Origin: Chrysogorgia sp. JL179-B06
Lineage: Eukaryota > Cnidaria > Anthozoa > Scleralcyonacea > Chrysogorgiidae
Length of the DNA stretch: 64,000 nt
Reading direction: 5' to 3'
NCBI GenBank assembly: GCA_035772405.1
Contig: JAYKKM010000005.1
Coordinates: 3,883,501 to 3,947,500, forward strand
Shown one piece after another: positions 28,003 to 38,200 of the stretch. Both the position numbers and the translations under genes were made by a program. Every line of letters begins with the position of its first letter. The first letter of the stretch is position 1. The notes below the pieces were generated by a model, which saw only the letters and a program-made list of their open reading frames with translations, was not told the DNA's origin and searched no databases.

Positions 28003-29289
28003 TCACACAGGAGACTCTTCTTTCTCATTGTTTGATTGTGTTACGTTTGGTTTCTTTGGCATGTTCGAACTATTATGTTTCAGCACACCAAATGAGCTTA
28101 GTTGTTGAACTTTGCGTTGAAATTGTCGGGAATCCGGACTATCACGTGAGCTGCTGTTTGATGGAGAATCAAAGAGACGAGATTTCACATGAGAATAGGT
28201 GGATGGAGCGTTAAAAATCTTTACATAACTTCGGTTTTTTGAAAACTGGTCGTTTTCTTTGCCTTGTTCTTGGTCAATAGACGTGCTCGTACCATTTTCG
28301 CTGCTGCCCTGTGCTGTATCTTCACTCTCTCGTCTTTCATTATTTCTTGTCTTCGGGGATTGATTACCATTGTTGGAAGACGACTCATAAAGACGAGACT
28401 TAACATGAGAATAATCTTTTGGAGAACTAAATATCTTCACATTGCTAGGATTCTTTGGGCTTTGCTGATTGTCTTTACTTTGATTCTGTTCATCTTTCTT
28501 TGAATCTTCTACCTTGTCATCTTTCTTAGAATCTTTTTCCTTGTCTACCTCCAACTTCTCGTTGATGGACCTGGAAGATTGTGCAGTTTGAGGTTTGTTG
28601 TTGCCGGAGGATGATGCGTCAAAGAGGCGAGACTTGACGTTGGAATAATCAGATGGTGCATCAATAATCTTTACATTATTTTGCTTTCCTGGGTTTTTCT
28701 CATTTTCCTTGGCCTGATTCTGTTCACTTCCTGGAGATTTTTCCCTATCTTCATTGACAGTTGCTGACTTATCAGACGATGCGTTTGTTATCTCCCTTAT
28801 GCTGGTAGCACTATTTTTCAACATCCCAAATGCGGATAATTGTAGAACCTTTTTTTTAAATCTTTGCGAATCTTGGTTTCCATTGTTTTTGTTAAATTGG
28901 GAAATATACAAACGAGATTGTACATGAGAATAATCGTAAGGAGAGTTAAAAATCTTCACATTACTTTGGCTTTTTACGTTATCCTCAGTTTCGTCGCTCT
29001 GATCAAGTTCGACTGAAGATTTGTCATCAAACTTCATTTTTTTTGGCAATGGCAAGCCATTTTCTTTTTCTTTCAAACCCAAACGAGACTCCACGTTGGG
29101 ATAATCAACGGGAGAATTAATGACTGGAATGCCATTTGCAGACGTTTCATTAGAGTGTTCACCATTAGTTGTTTTTTTGTTGTCTTCGTCAGTATCGCCA
29201 GGATTTACTTCGATAATAATTGAACCGGCATTTGTAACACGGTCATCATCTGTGGTCTGTGGGACCTCCACGTCAGGAACTGAAGATTT
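28003..29289 (-). CDS. Receptor terminal exon: five spaced VKIF..P.DYSHVKSRL repeats
   Basis: The 428-residue polar exon is rich in Ser, Asn, Asp and Lys and probably disordered. Five copies of a motif recur: IPVINSPVDYPNVESRL (about 29086-29132), NVKIFNSPYDYSHVQSRL (28909-28962), NVKIIDAPSDYSNVKSRL (28621-28680), NVKIFSSPKDYSHVKSRL (28387-28445) and YVKIFNAPSTYSHVKSRL (28170-28232). A second motif, RFKKKVLQLSAFGMLK, occurs after the second copy and again as RQFQRKVQQLSSFGVLK after the fifth. The protein ends ESPV, which fits a class I PDZ-binding terminus. It joins exon 18 in phase 0 (ETIE|KSSV). Confidence 0.85.
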   Translation of the reverse strand, partial: KSSVPDVEVPQTTDDDRVTNAGSIIIEVNPGDTDEDNKKTTNGEHSNETSANGIPVINSPVDYPNVESRLGLKEKENGLPLPKKMKFDDKSSVELDQSDETEDNVKSQSNVKIFNSPYDYSHVQSRLYISQFNKNNGNQDSQRFKKKVLQLSAFGMLKNSATSIREITNASSDKSATVNEDREKSPGSEQNQAKENEKNPGKQNNVKIIDAPSDYSNVKSRLFDASSSGNNKPQTAQSSRSINEKLEVDKEKDSKKDDKVEDSKKDEQNQSKDNQQSPKNPSNVKIFSSPKDYSHVKSRLYESSSNNGNQSPKTRNNERRESEDTAQGSSENGTSTSIDQEQGKENDQFSKNRSYVKIFNAPSTYSHVKSRLFDSPSNSSSRDSPDSRQFQRKVQQLSSFGVLKHNSSNMPKKPNVTQSNNEKEESPV

Positions 29290-35200: not shown

Positions 35201-38200
35201 AACACCAATACAAAAACCAACGCCAACACCAACACTAAAACCAAAAATAGCACTATATAACACCGACACTAACACCAACAACACCAACGAATGCAAGCGT
35301 TATCAGCATTTTATTCAAACACTAGAGAGTGTAGATTGTACCTGAAATGTAGGGAAATATTTTAAATATTTAGTAATAATGGACTTACTTTGCTCCCAAC
35401 ATGAGTAAAGTCTAATTTCTGATGGAACACTTTGAAACGGTTGTAATGAGGTTTTCCTCCACGTTTCTCACCATTGTCATCTTCAAAACTTCCATTGGAA
35501 CGTCCAGAACTACTGTATTCAGATGAACAATCGCGACCATCATTGTTATTGTAGAAAACGAAGCCTGTTTGGGTTTGTTTCGTTGCCTGAGTACCTTTCT
35601 GATACCTCCGTAACATAAGTAATTCATCTTCTTTCTAGAACATACAAAATATTAGAGATAAGTAGTTTAATAATACTAATTATTATATGGCTTGGACTTA
35701 ACGTAACCTTTCTGCAATCTGATTGGTTGCTGAGCGGTCTTTACAAAAGAACTGAAAAGTTTTAAAAATTGCGAAAAAATTGAAGAAATGTGAGAGCCAT
35801 ATAATAAAAGAAGCCAATGTAATATAAGGTTTTTAAATAACGAGGTTAAGGCATTTTAAAAACATTATATTAGGAAATATATACATTTTACAATTTAATG
35901 TCACAAATAAAACTAACAATCATGTATGCGGGTACTACCCGTGAGGAAGGTTTACCAATGAGGAAGGTTTACCAATGAGGAAGGTTTTGAAGTGAAAACA
36001 ACGAGTAAAAAACGTGTTGAAAAAAAACGCAGTAAGTAGCAGTTATGAGCTGCAGTCAATAGTACTGTCTCACCATGGCAAAGGTAAAAATCACGATATT
36101 TATGATGGTCATAAAATTAGCAAAAATTTCGAGGAAGCTATATTTTGAGGAAGGTTGTGAAAATTTGAATTCCTCCACGGAGGAAGGATGAACAGTTTTT
36201 GCAACTCTGAGCTAATTTAAAAAGGTAGGTCTTAAGAACAGATTTAAATTCAGCGGTGGATTTAATAATAGGTGATTAATGACATCGTGTGGTGATGGGT
36301 TGTCGGATAGGCATTTTATTTTATTATTATTCAAAAGGAATAAAATGAAGATAAATTATGATAATATTAGAGTTGAACAGAGAGTTTCCAGTGCTCTGAT
36401 TGGTTTAAAGGTGCACTACCACTATAGTCCATCGGCGGAGCGACCTGGGGCGGGACCGGATAGAGGGGTATTTCCCCAAATATTGGCAAGAAGTGCCCTT
36501 TTTGGAATATGGAAAGAACGCATGCGTTATGAATCTATTGAAATACTGTCTGATTGCATCTAAGGATGAACACCGCCGATAAAAATAACGCTGTCTACAC
36601 TCGAACCATATTTATCCGGGGGAGGGGGCCGCGCAACCTTAATCCGGCCCTGATGTACAGATATGACACTTTGTTATCTTACATATTTTAGAGACCTGCT
36701 CTATTTTTGCAAACATTTTTCTCAGAAATCACCGGGTACATGGGCCTTGTGGAATTAAATTTTTTCTGAAGGTATGAATTAGTTGAATCGTCTTTTAAAC
36801 GTTCTTTGTAGTTATTATTGCTAACCTTTTGTAGTTCTTTTTGTAAAATCATGATTTGCCTTTCTCTGTCGCCTGGCATATCTCCAATCTGATAATCCAT
36901 TCTGTCCTCTCCCGAGTCTTTTACAAATGAACTGCGGTTTTTCCTTGGACCCCAAAATAATGCATCCCATAAGCCCTTGCAACACAGAAGTTGGGCCAAC
37001 GCTGTACAGCAACAACAAAGTGAAGCCAGCCAAGAACAGAATATTGGAGGGCAACAAACACATTTATATTTAGTGGTTGCATCTTGACTGCGAACTTTGA
37101 TTTTATGTCTTGGACGACAAAAGGTTTTTATTATCTAAAATAAAATATGACATAAAATCAATAATATAATTCTAAAATGTTAAAGGTGAGTCTCACCGTG
37201 ATGCATTACGCGCTCACAGTATCACTGGCGGCCATTTCACCACCACAAAATTCGTTTGTTGTTTACATTATTTAAAGTACATATAATTTAACCCCCCCCC
37301 CCCCCACACAGATTATAGTTTTCTGTAGAGAGGACACCAAAATAGTTGATAAGTTCTTTTAGAGTTTTTGATTTGGTCCATTCGTTCATGGCAATATTTT
37401 GGATTTCCCGCTAAATTTCCGCAAATTGCAAAAAGGGGTCTGGTAACTACCTTATGTGACGTAACTTAAATGACGGAAGTGGCCCATAACAGTTATTTAC
37501 TCATGTATTCTGTTGTGTAGTTATCATCGACGCGAGCAATTAATATGTCAGATAGATGTGTTATGTTTGGGTTTTCAAATGGATCAGACTTAGAAAACGG
37601 AATTCACTTCATCACATTCCTTAATTACCAACCTCGTAACCCATTTTGCCTCCACGGTGGAAGGTCGGCGAAAATGGCCCTGGGATCGGCCGGTCGATTC
37701 CATAATCTTATTGGCCAGTTCTAAAACTCGATTAATTCAGCTAGAGTATAATTTATTCATCTAAATCCACATGTTAAGAAATTTCCTCGTCTTTAAATTT
37801 AAATGAGAAATATAAGGGCTTTGATTAATTGTCAAGAACTGCATTCGATATATACTTGTTCCTCCATAATATTTATAAGATAATCATTGCTGTATTATGA
37901 ATTAATTGCTTTTAGGATGAATGGTTTACATGAACAAGTCTGCAGAGCGTTGCATATTTCTCATTCATTATCACATCAACAGAGTAAACAAAGACAAATT
38001 ACCTAAATTATCATATCAAAACACCCAGATATTCTGGGTGTCATGTGACCCCACCTGGAGGCAAAATGCCCTGGAAACGAGGTTGCTTAATTACGTCACA
38101 TGTGTCTCGTCCCAGGCTTCTTTCGGGTTTTTTCGTCTCTCGGTTTTTTCTTGCAAATAACAATGTTTAAAGAGAGATGTCTCCGAAACGATGGATCAAA

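What the first reader, a model, noticed from the sequence alone, without database searches (positions are those of the whole stretch)
28003..35634. Tau/MAP2-like repeats in the cytoplasmic tail of a GABA-B-type receptor
Six spaced copies of K-[IV]-F-x(4)-D-[YF]-[ST]-[HN]-V-x-S-[KR] occur in the tail. One spans exons 16-17 (KVFHQKLDFTHVGSK, then VDSRL with NHVPGK) and five are in exon 19 (for example VKIFNSPYDYSHVQSRL). Without gaps, the latter aligns with tau VQIVYKPVDLSKVTSKCGS at V, I, P, D, S, V and S, and K/R, Q/K and V/F are conservative. The exon 16-17 copy has the tau core KLDF..VxSK and an HVPG ending. I know of no GPCR with such repeats. If real, the receptor could bind microtubules directly. 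The repeats lack the GGG ending, so a convergent short motif remains possible.
Basis: partly seen in the sequence, partly recalled or inferred. Interest (0 to 1): 0.92.

Follow-up and report, generated by a model that had tools for sequence, protein, structure and literature searches.

The report
Neurotransmitter-type receptor with tau-like tail
A gene of an octocoral (the soft-coral group) encodes a predicted GABA-B-like cell-surface receptor whose inner tail carries six copies of a motif like the first half of the repeats with which the brain protein tau grips microtubules, so the receptor itself would likely hold on to the cell's microtubules.

Summary
The minus strand (62,553 to 28,003) carries one GABA-B-like class C receptor gene. 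Its spliced tail (35,634 to 28,003) scores 58.3 bits against Pfam PF00418, the tau/MAP tubulin-binding repeat (E 6.8e-16, cut-off 27); five shuffles and the reversal give no PF00418 match. A profile of the six window repeats matches 29 distinct PDB sequences at E up to 10, all tau. The tail belongs to the receptor: a 1,544-aa Dendronephthya gigantea protein is collinear with the gene and carries ANF_receptor, 7tm_3 and PF00418. Three more proteins, 34-37% identical in the 7TM, combine 7tm_3 and PF00418 too. The organism is an octocoral, not a sponge. The repeats keep the first half of a tau repeat (R2 275-290) and lack the PGGG half, so membership of the tau/MAP2/MAP4 protein family is not claimed. 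Most likely mechanism: multivalent direct microtubule binding, helped by coiled-coil-like stretches and an LC8-like TQT motif. Microtubule binding is untested; convergence is not excluded.

The parts
61927..62553 (-). first coding exon: start Met, N-terminal region and beginning of the GABA-B-type ligand-binding domain
   Evidence: tblastn of Dendronephthya P0001 from residue 1, same start Met; donor GTGAGA after ...STQ
61687..61830 (-). second exon, ligand-binding domain
   Evidence: tblastn of P0001; acceptor and donor
42971..60202 (-). span of the remaining ligand-binding-domain exons; matched pieces at 60202-60028, 57731-57627, 56790-56719, 55990-55793, 54477-54238, 43829-43767, 43048-42971 (boundaries approximate)
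   Evidence: collinear tblastn pieces of P0001 255-557; ANF_receptor 122.2 bits in P0001
41386..41533 (-). exon, start of 7TM
   Evidence: PF00003 7tm_3 116.9 bits for the joined exons; splice signals
40857..40989 (-). 7TM exon
40559..40666 (-). 7TM exon
40162..40305 (-). 7TM exon
39049..39384 (-). 7TM exon
36826..37134 (-). juxtamembrane exon: Cys-rich stretch (36979-37062) and start of the first coiled-coil-like stretch (36826-36873)
   Evidence: translation; aligned with P0001 and P0004-P0006; coiled coil judged by eye, no predictor run
35566..35580 (-). K-Q-T-Q-T, dynein light chain LC8-like motif; TQT kept in 5 of 5 receptors compared
   Evidence: LC8 motif definition from the abstract of PMC3078936 as listed
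35389..35433 (-). proximal tau-like repeat KVFHQKLDFTHVGSK, continued in exon 17 by VDS (S-[KR]-x-D-S)
   Evidence: PF00418 24.6 bits, E 2.3e-5 alone; KLDF and S-[KR]-x-D-S in 5 of 5 receptors
29083..29127 (-). distal repeat 1, degenerate, PVINSPVDYPNVESR
   Evidence: no PF00418 match alone
28912..28956 (-). distal repeat 2 KIFNSPYDYSHVQSR
   Evidence: PF00418 18.6 bits alone
28627..28671 (-). distal repeat 3 KIIDAPSDYSNVKSR
   Evidence: PF00418 14.6 bits alone
28393..28437 (-). distal repeat 4 KIFSSPKDYSHVKSR
   Evidence: PF00418 17.1 bits alone
28177..28221 (-). distal repeat 5 KIFNAPSTYSHVKSR
   Evidence: PF00418 14.5 bits alone
28006..28014 (-). C-terminal S-P-V, PDZ-ligand-like ending; [ST]-x-hydrophobic also in P0001, P0002, P0003, not in P0004-P0006
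   Evidence: motif rule recalled

Best explanation
This octocoral gene encodes a predicted GABA-B-like class C receptor whose long cytoplasmic tail carries six copies of a motif that matches the first half of the tau/MAP tubulin-binding repeat (Pfam PF00418), and through these the receptor would likely bind microtubules directly. The proposed mechanism is multivalent weak binding: each repeat would lie along a protofilament as tau R2 residues 275-290 do, with the conserved Ser and the following Lys/Arg taking the place of tau Ser289-Lys290 on alpha-tubulin. Two coiled-coil-like stretches and a conserved TQT motif of the dynein-light-chain LC8 type would pair the tails and raise avidity. The outcome would be a receptor held at, or carried along, microtubules near the membrane (for example in cilia or neurites). 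Shown: gene, architecture, conservation and motif match. Inferred: common descent with tau, microtubule and LC8 binding, pairing, and localisation.
For: Tail against Pfam: PF00418 58.3 bits, E 6.8e-16, over the cut-off of 27; 0 of 6 decoys (5 shuffles, 1 reversal) match it. All 6 related proteins found score over the cut-off, 36.8 to 85.0 bits. Single repeats: 5 of 6 window repeats match; 16 of 16 that I picked from 48 match at E up to 10; the proximal repeat of P0004 passes the cut-off alone (27.4 bits). Profile against the PDB: 29 of 29 hits are tau from the window repeats alone, 30 of 30 from the wider set. Same gene: the D. gigantea protein is collinear with the window over ectodomain, 7TM and tail; P0006 holds 7TM and tail on a contig of at most 3,426 bases, as expected of spliced cDNA (inference). 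Deep conservation: TQT, KLDF and S-[KR]-x-D-S in 5 of 5 receptors although the two groups share 34-37% 7TM identity. Repeats are better kept than the rest of the tail: 57/93 against 172/444 aligned residues identical with P0001, 55/96 against 114/392 with P0004 (the repeats were picked by motif, so biased). Simulations of tau R2 on the microtubule place high contact frequencies at residues 279-297, with Ser289 on alpha-tubulin 427-434 (PMC10032563, passages).
Against: The best match stops at profile position 16-19 of 31; the PGGG half, part of the tubulin contact of tau, is missing. None of the six window repeats reaches the Pfam cut-off alone (best 24.6 bits) and one does not match at all; of the 10 single repeats scanned only one passes, at 27.4. 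The summed scores come from repeats that are copies of one another. The E of 4.7e-16 for 6cvn rests on four identical R2 copies in that chain; the other tau chains score 0.0002 to 0.43 or 0.0006 to 0.37. A single-sequence search of the tail against the PDB found nothing at E up to 10. Genome-wide, PF00418 finds nothing at E 0.001, reaches only E 6.13 for the window's exon 16 and misses exon 19. The repeats are 57 to 151 residues apart, not 31-32 as in tau. The window tail is nearly neutral (pI 7.8). No expression or binding data.
Confidence: 0.62

Rival explanations
1. Convergence: the motif is a short linear motif that multiplied in a disordered tail and binds some other partner; its likeness to tau R2 is accidental.
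For: Only about 16 to 19 positions match and the PGGG half is absent; single window repeats score under the Pfam cut-off; the single-sequence search of the PDB is empty.
Against: The PDB hits of the profiles are all tau, 29 of 29 and 30 of 30; decoys give none. Two of three proximal repeats of the distant receptor group fit PF00418 slightly better than the octocoral ones (27.4 and 25.3 against 24.6 and 24.3 bits), but the third, of P0006, is weaker (17.8), so this is only a hint.
Confidence: 0.2
2. The repeats descend from tau-type repeats but now serve to stick receptors together: the strand-forming start VKIFN, like the hexapeptides of tau, would drive clustering, and microtubules are not bound.
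For: The part that is kept includes the tau hexapeptide region (VQIINK in R2) while the PGGG half is lost; the coiled-coil-like stretches and TQT also point to self-association.
Against: The downstream V-x-S-[KR], on the tubulin-contact side, is the best-kept part (Ser invariant among 16 chosen repeats; next residue K or R in 45 of 48, where the search pattern itself demanded the Ser), which self-assembly alone would not need.
Confidence: 0.13
3. Gene-model error: exons 16-19 belong to a separate MAP-like gene downstream of the receptor.
For: No RNA data for this genome; two database proteins (P0002, P0003) are tail-only predictions.
Against: Collinear annotated D. gigantea protein; three more proteins with 7tm_3 and PF00418 in one chain, one on a contig of at most 3,426 bases; phase-0 joins carry the coiled-coil-like stretch across the junction.
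Confidence: 0.03

Closest known systems
Tau/MAP2/MAP4 microtubule-binding repeats (Pfam PF00418)
   Same: Several copies of a core like tau R2 275-290 (VQIINKKLDLSNVQSK), including the Ser289-Lys290 tubulin contact.
   Different: PGGG half missing, long uneven linkers, carried by a membrane receptor.
GABA-B receptor (class C GPCR, 7tm_3 + ANF_receptor)
   Same: 7TM best PDB match GABA-B subunit 2, E 2.6e-37; P0001 ectodomain plus 7TM best match GABA-B subunit 1, E 3.2e-78; coiled-coil-like stretch after the 7TM.
   Different: GABA-contact Ser246 and Glu465 of subunit 1 (positions recalled) do not look kept in the aligned P0001 (by eye), so the ligand is unknown; tail with tau-like repeats.
GABA-B1 with Marlin-1, a microtubule-binding protein (abstract of PMC2685396 as listed)
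   Same: A GABA-B-type receptor subunit that associates with microtubule machinery.
   Different: There a separate protein binds microtubules; here the motif is built into the receptor.
LC8/DYNLL-binding motif proteins (abstract of PMC3078936 as listed)
   Same: K-x-T-Q-T in window and P0001; TQT in 5 of 5.
   Different: Binding untested; the distant group has WTQT without the Lys.

Membership tests
Tau/MAP tubulin-binding repeat (PF00418) | Whole-protein score over the curated cut-off of 27 bits | tested here: met
   58.3 bits for the window tail; 36.8-85.0 bits in 6 of 6 relatives
Tau/MAP tubulin-binding repeat (PF00418) | V-x-S-K anchor of the repeat core | tested here: met
   Ser in 16 of 16 chosen repeats; next residue K or R in 45 of 48 repeats found by a pattern that demands the Ser
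Tau/MAP tubulin-binding repeat (PF00418) | K-x-G-S after the core | tested here: inconclusive
   proximal repeats have S-[KR]-x-D-S in 5 of 5 receptors; distal window repeats do not have it in register
Tau/MAP2/MAP4 protein family | Repeat ends in PGGG (rule recalled) | tested here: not met
   best matches stop at profile position 16-19 of 31
Tau/MAP2/MAP4 protein family | Repeats in tandem every 31-32 residues (rule recalled) | tested here: not met
   spacing 57-151 residues
Tau/MAP2/MAP4 protein family | Binds microtubules | not testable with these tools
   needs co-sedimentation
GABA-B-like class C GPCR | 7tm_3 domain closest to GABA-B | tested here: met
   116.9 bits, cut-off 33.5; top 15 of 19 PDB hits are GABA-B subunits, the other 4 GPR156
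GABA-B-like class C GPCR | Venus-flytrap ligand-binding domain | tested here: met
   ANF_receptor 122.2 bits in P0001, collinear with window exons; not scanned on the window exons themselves
GABA-B-like class C GPCR | GABA-binding residues | tested here: inconclusive
   by eye on the P0001 alignment two recalled contact positions do not look kept; window not tested
LC8-binding proteins | K-x-[TVI]-Q-[TV] motif in a disordered stretch | tested here: met
   KQTQT in the window; this is a sequence match only, binding not tested

The most novel reading that the evidence does not exclude
In octocorals the tau microtubule-binding repeat lives in a neurotransmitter-type receptor and not in a tau protein: receptor and microtubule anchor are one chain. 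Because the same combination occurs in receptors only 34-37% identical in the 7TM, it is ancient, and it may show an early use of the tau repeat as a membrane-to-microtubule tether.
Probability: 0.3. Interest if true: 0.93.

Novelty: new variant of a known kind. Interest (0 to 1): 0.82.

Why it matters
No GPCR with its own tau-type repeats is known to me, and none appears in the listings of eight literature searches (several lists were capped, e.g. 20 of 216, 20 of 911, 15 of 218). If the repeats bind microtubules, a signal receptor could be placed on, moved along or mechanically coupled to microtubules without an adaptor, and might change microtubules when activated. It would also put tau-type repeats in cnidarians; the family tree of PMC4815063 (section 6 and passages read) runs from flatworms to vertebrates plus one fungus, and its text does not contain the word 'cnidaria'. 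So the age and first use of the repeat that forms Alzheimer filaments would become a testable question.

Tried and rejected
Sponge origin: rejected. Mitochondrial contig C460 encodes a 985-aa MutS with MutS I, III, V and HNH, the domain set and size reported for octocoral mtMutS (PMC8438181, passages).

A canonical tau gene in the same genome: PF00418 finds nothing over its cut-off, and a DNA pattern for N-[hydrophobic]-x-H-x-P-G-G-G (motif recalled) gives 2 hits, both in runs of G, against 1 for the backward control. This does not prove absence: the family search scored only 20 candidates, missed exon 19 of the window, its controls are prokaryotes, and an intron inside the motif would hide it.

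A second paralog: the other copy found, on C391, is 99.4-100% identical in the four large matching blocks, introns included, so I take it as the other haplotype. It reads one base longer in one exon (310 against 309); I did not pursue whether that is real. One weak 7TM relative, whose tail was not examined, lies on C478. Counts in this genome are lower bounds by the tool's own statement.

Signal of selection between haplotypes: 6 replacement and 6 silent differences in exon 19; too few to tell.

Using the 7TM alone as query returned only P0001 at E <= 1e-10 among 2,493 candidates, so I cannot say what share of cnidarian GABA-B-like receptors has the tail. Taxa of P0002-P0006 are not given by the sources. 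Pfam also gave side hits: Peptidase_M9, DUF7422, HnRNPA1_LC, FUSC-like and others, one of them just over its cut-off (DUF7422, 27.4 against 27, in P0003); I judged these low-complexity noise without further test. Structure prediction was not run: the tail is expected to be disordered.

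Full report
What is there. The minus strand of the window holds one gene. The D. gigantea protein P0001 (1,544 aa) aligns to it piece by piece in order, from the shared start methionine at 62,553 to the last residues at 28,006. Pfam finds ANF_receptor, 7tm_3 and PF00418 in P0001, 7tm_3 (116.9 bits) in the joined window exons 41,533-36,826, and PF00418 (58.3 bits, E 6.8e-16) in the joined exons 35,634-28,003. 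The ten 3' exons have AG/GT signals; the joins from 37,134 to the last exon are all phase 0.

The repeats. Singly, 5 of 6 match PF00418, the best at 24.6 bits, under the cut-off of 27, and the degenerate one at 29127-29083 does not match. In six proteins from the database plus the window my search pattern finds 48 copies, a lower bound because it needs 12 residues downstream. I picked 16 of the 48 for a profile; all 16 match PF00418 singly at E up to 10, the best at 3.1e-6, which is the proximal repeat of P0004 at 27.4 bits. With the profile of the six window repeats alone, 29 distinct PDB sequences match at E up to 10 and all are tau; with the 16-repeat profile 30 of 30 are tau. The aligned core is vKIfNaklDYSHVkSK against VQIINKKLDLSNVQSK, tau R2. 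The top E-value (6cvn) is inflated by four identical copies of R2 in that chain. Against this, the bare tail found nothing in the PDB. Five shuffled tails and the reversed tail gave no PF00418 match.

What is kept and what is lost. The best matches cover Pfam positions 1-16 or 2-19 of 31. The PGGG half is gone. In 5 of 5 receptors the first repeat goes on as S-[KR]-x-D-S where tau has S-K-x-G-S (recalled). In simulations of tau R2 on the microtubule, contacts are frequent for residues 279-297, and Ser289 touches alpha-tubulin residues 427-434 (PMC10032563, passages). The receptor repeats correspond to 12 of those 19 positions (279-290), the proximal one to 15 (to 293). The R3 hexapeptide region can also bind tubulin at a lateral site (PMC13224075, section 5), but that was reported as specific to R3.

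The rest of the tail. Between 7TM and distal repeats lie a Cys-rich stretch, a coiled-coil-like stretch, a TQT motif, the proximal repeat and a second coiled-coil-like stretch (coiled coils by eye; the Cys-rich stretch is not seen in P0005). The TQT is K-Q-T-Q-T here and K-E-T-Q-T in P0001, matching the LC8 motif core K-x-[TVI]-Q-[TV] (abstract of PMC3078936 as listed); P0004-P0006 have W-T-Q-T. Window, P0001, P0002 and P0003 end in [ST]-x-hydrophobic, a PDZ-ligand-like ending by recalled rule; P0004-P0006 do not.

Spread. Searches returned six relatives in all. Four have 7tm_3 and PF00418 in one chain (P0001, P0004, P0005, P0006); P0002 and P0003 are tail-only predictions. Window and P0001 are 72% identical in the 7TM; P0004-P0006 are 71-75% identical with one another and 34-37% with the first group. 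P0006 lies on a contig of at most 3,426 bases, too short for introns like those of the window, so it is probably from cDNA (inference). In the window's genome (781 Mb) the tail was found at two places, window and C391; C391 is 99.4-100% identical in the large matching blocks, so I read it as one gene with two haplotypes.

Organism. A 62.7-kb contig, C460, carries head-to-tail mitochondrial copies (cox1 every about 19.0 kb) with a 985-aa MutS of domains I, III, V and HNH. PMC8438181 (passages) reports such a gene in the octocoral mitochondrial genomes that it downloaded (89 species), mean 987 aa, and marks Cnidaria as the only phylum with it. The window is from an octocoral; the species is not known to me.

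How it works. The best-supported reading is a receptor with a built-in, multivalent microtubule tether. Shown: gene, domains, conservation, motif match. Inferred: descent from the same repeat as tau, microtubule binding, pairing by coiled coils and LC8, placement in the cell. I give 0.62 to the microtubule reading, 0.2 to convergence, 0.13 to self-association and 0.03 to a gene-model error. Vertebrate GABA-B1 associates with Marlin-1, itself a microtubule-binding protein (abstract of PMC2685396 as listed), so coupling of this receptor class to microtubules is not odd; building it into the receptor is.

Membership. The tail passes the PF00418 cut-off, but two defining features of tau/MAP2/MAP4 proteins (PGGG, 31-32-residue tandem spacing) were tested and not met. 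I therefore call it a GABA-B-like receptor with tau-type half-repeats, not a member of the tau family.

Novelty. Searches listed no paper on such a receptor (titles and abstract starts seen; lists capped at 8 to 20 rows; one search found no paper with all five terms). The library lacks most subscription papers. Pfam annotation of the D. gigantea protein exists in the database, so the combination is visible but, as far as these searches go, undescribed.

Noticed in passing
window 33000-35280: Long TAACACCAAC-type minisatellite inside the intron between exons 16 and 17; that intron spans about 2.5 kb here and about 9 kb in the other haplotype on C391.
   Followed up: partly
window 19400-25260: Pyrimidine-rich tandem repeat (unit with TTCCTCAATATTCC...TTTATAGCTCCTCTC) downstream of the gene, with strong GC skew; seen as sequence from 24001 and as repetitive frames from 19408, true start not determined.
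   Followed up: no
window 25196-25474 (+): SR-rich reading frame ending in EEANALRAKLGLKPLKP; weak match to the HIND motif PF19252 (23.2 bits, cut-off 25), possibly the last exon of a splicing factor.
   Followed up: partly
window 49134-49328 (+): Protein-kinase-like fragment (HCDIKSDNIMV; 25.9 bits, below the cut-off of 31.7) inside an intron of the receptor gene, opposite strand.
   Followed up: partly
L021 (G000:C478:379318-379578): Another GABA-B-like 7TM exon in the genome (28% identical, E 1.0e-4), next to repeats; its tail was not examined.
   Followed up: no
window 41055-41370: Intron of the 7TM part made largely of GAY-type triplets that read as an Asp-rich frame of over 100 codons on the minus strand.
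   Followed up: no
G000:C460: Mitochondrial genome assembled as head-to-tail copies, unit about 19.0 kb.
   Followed up: partly
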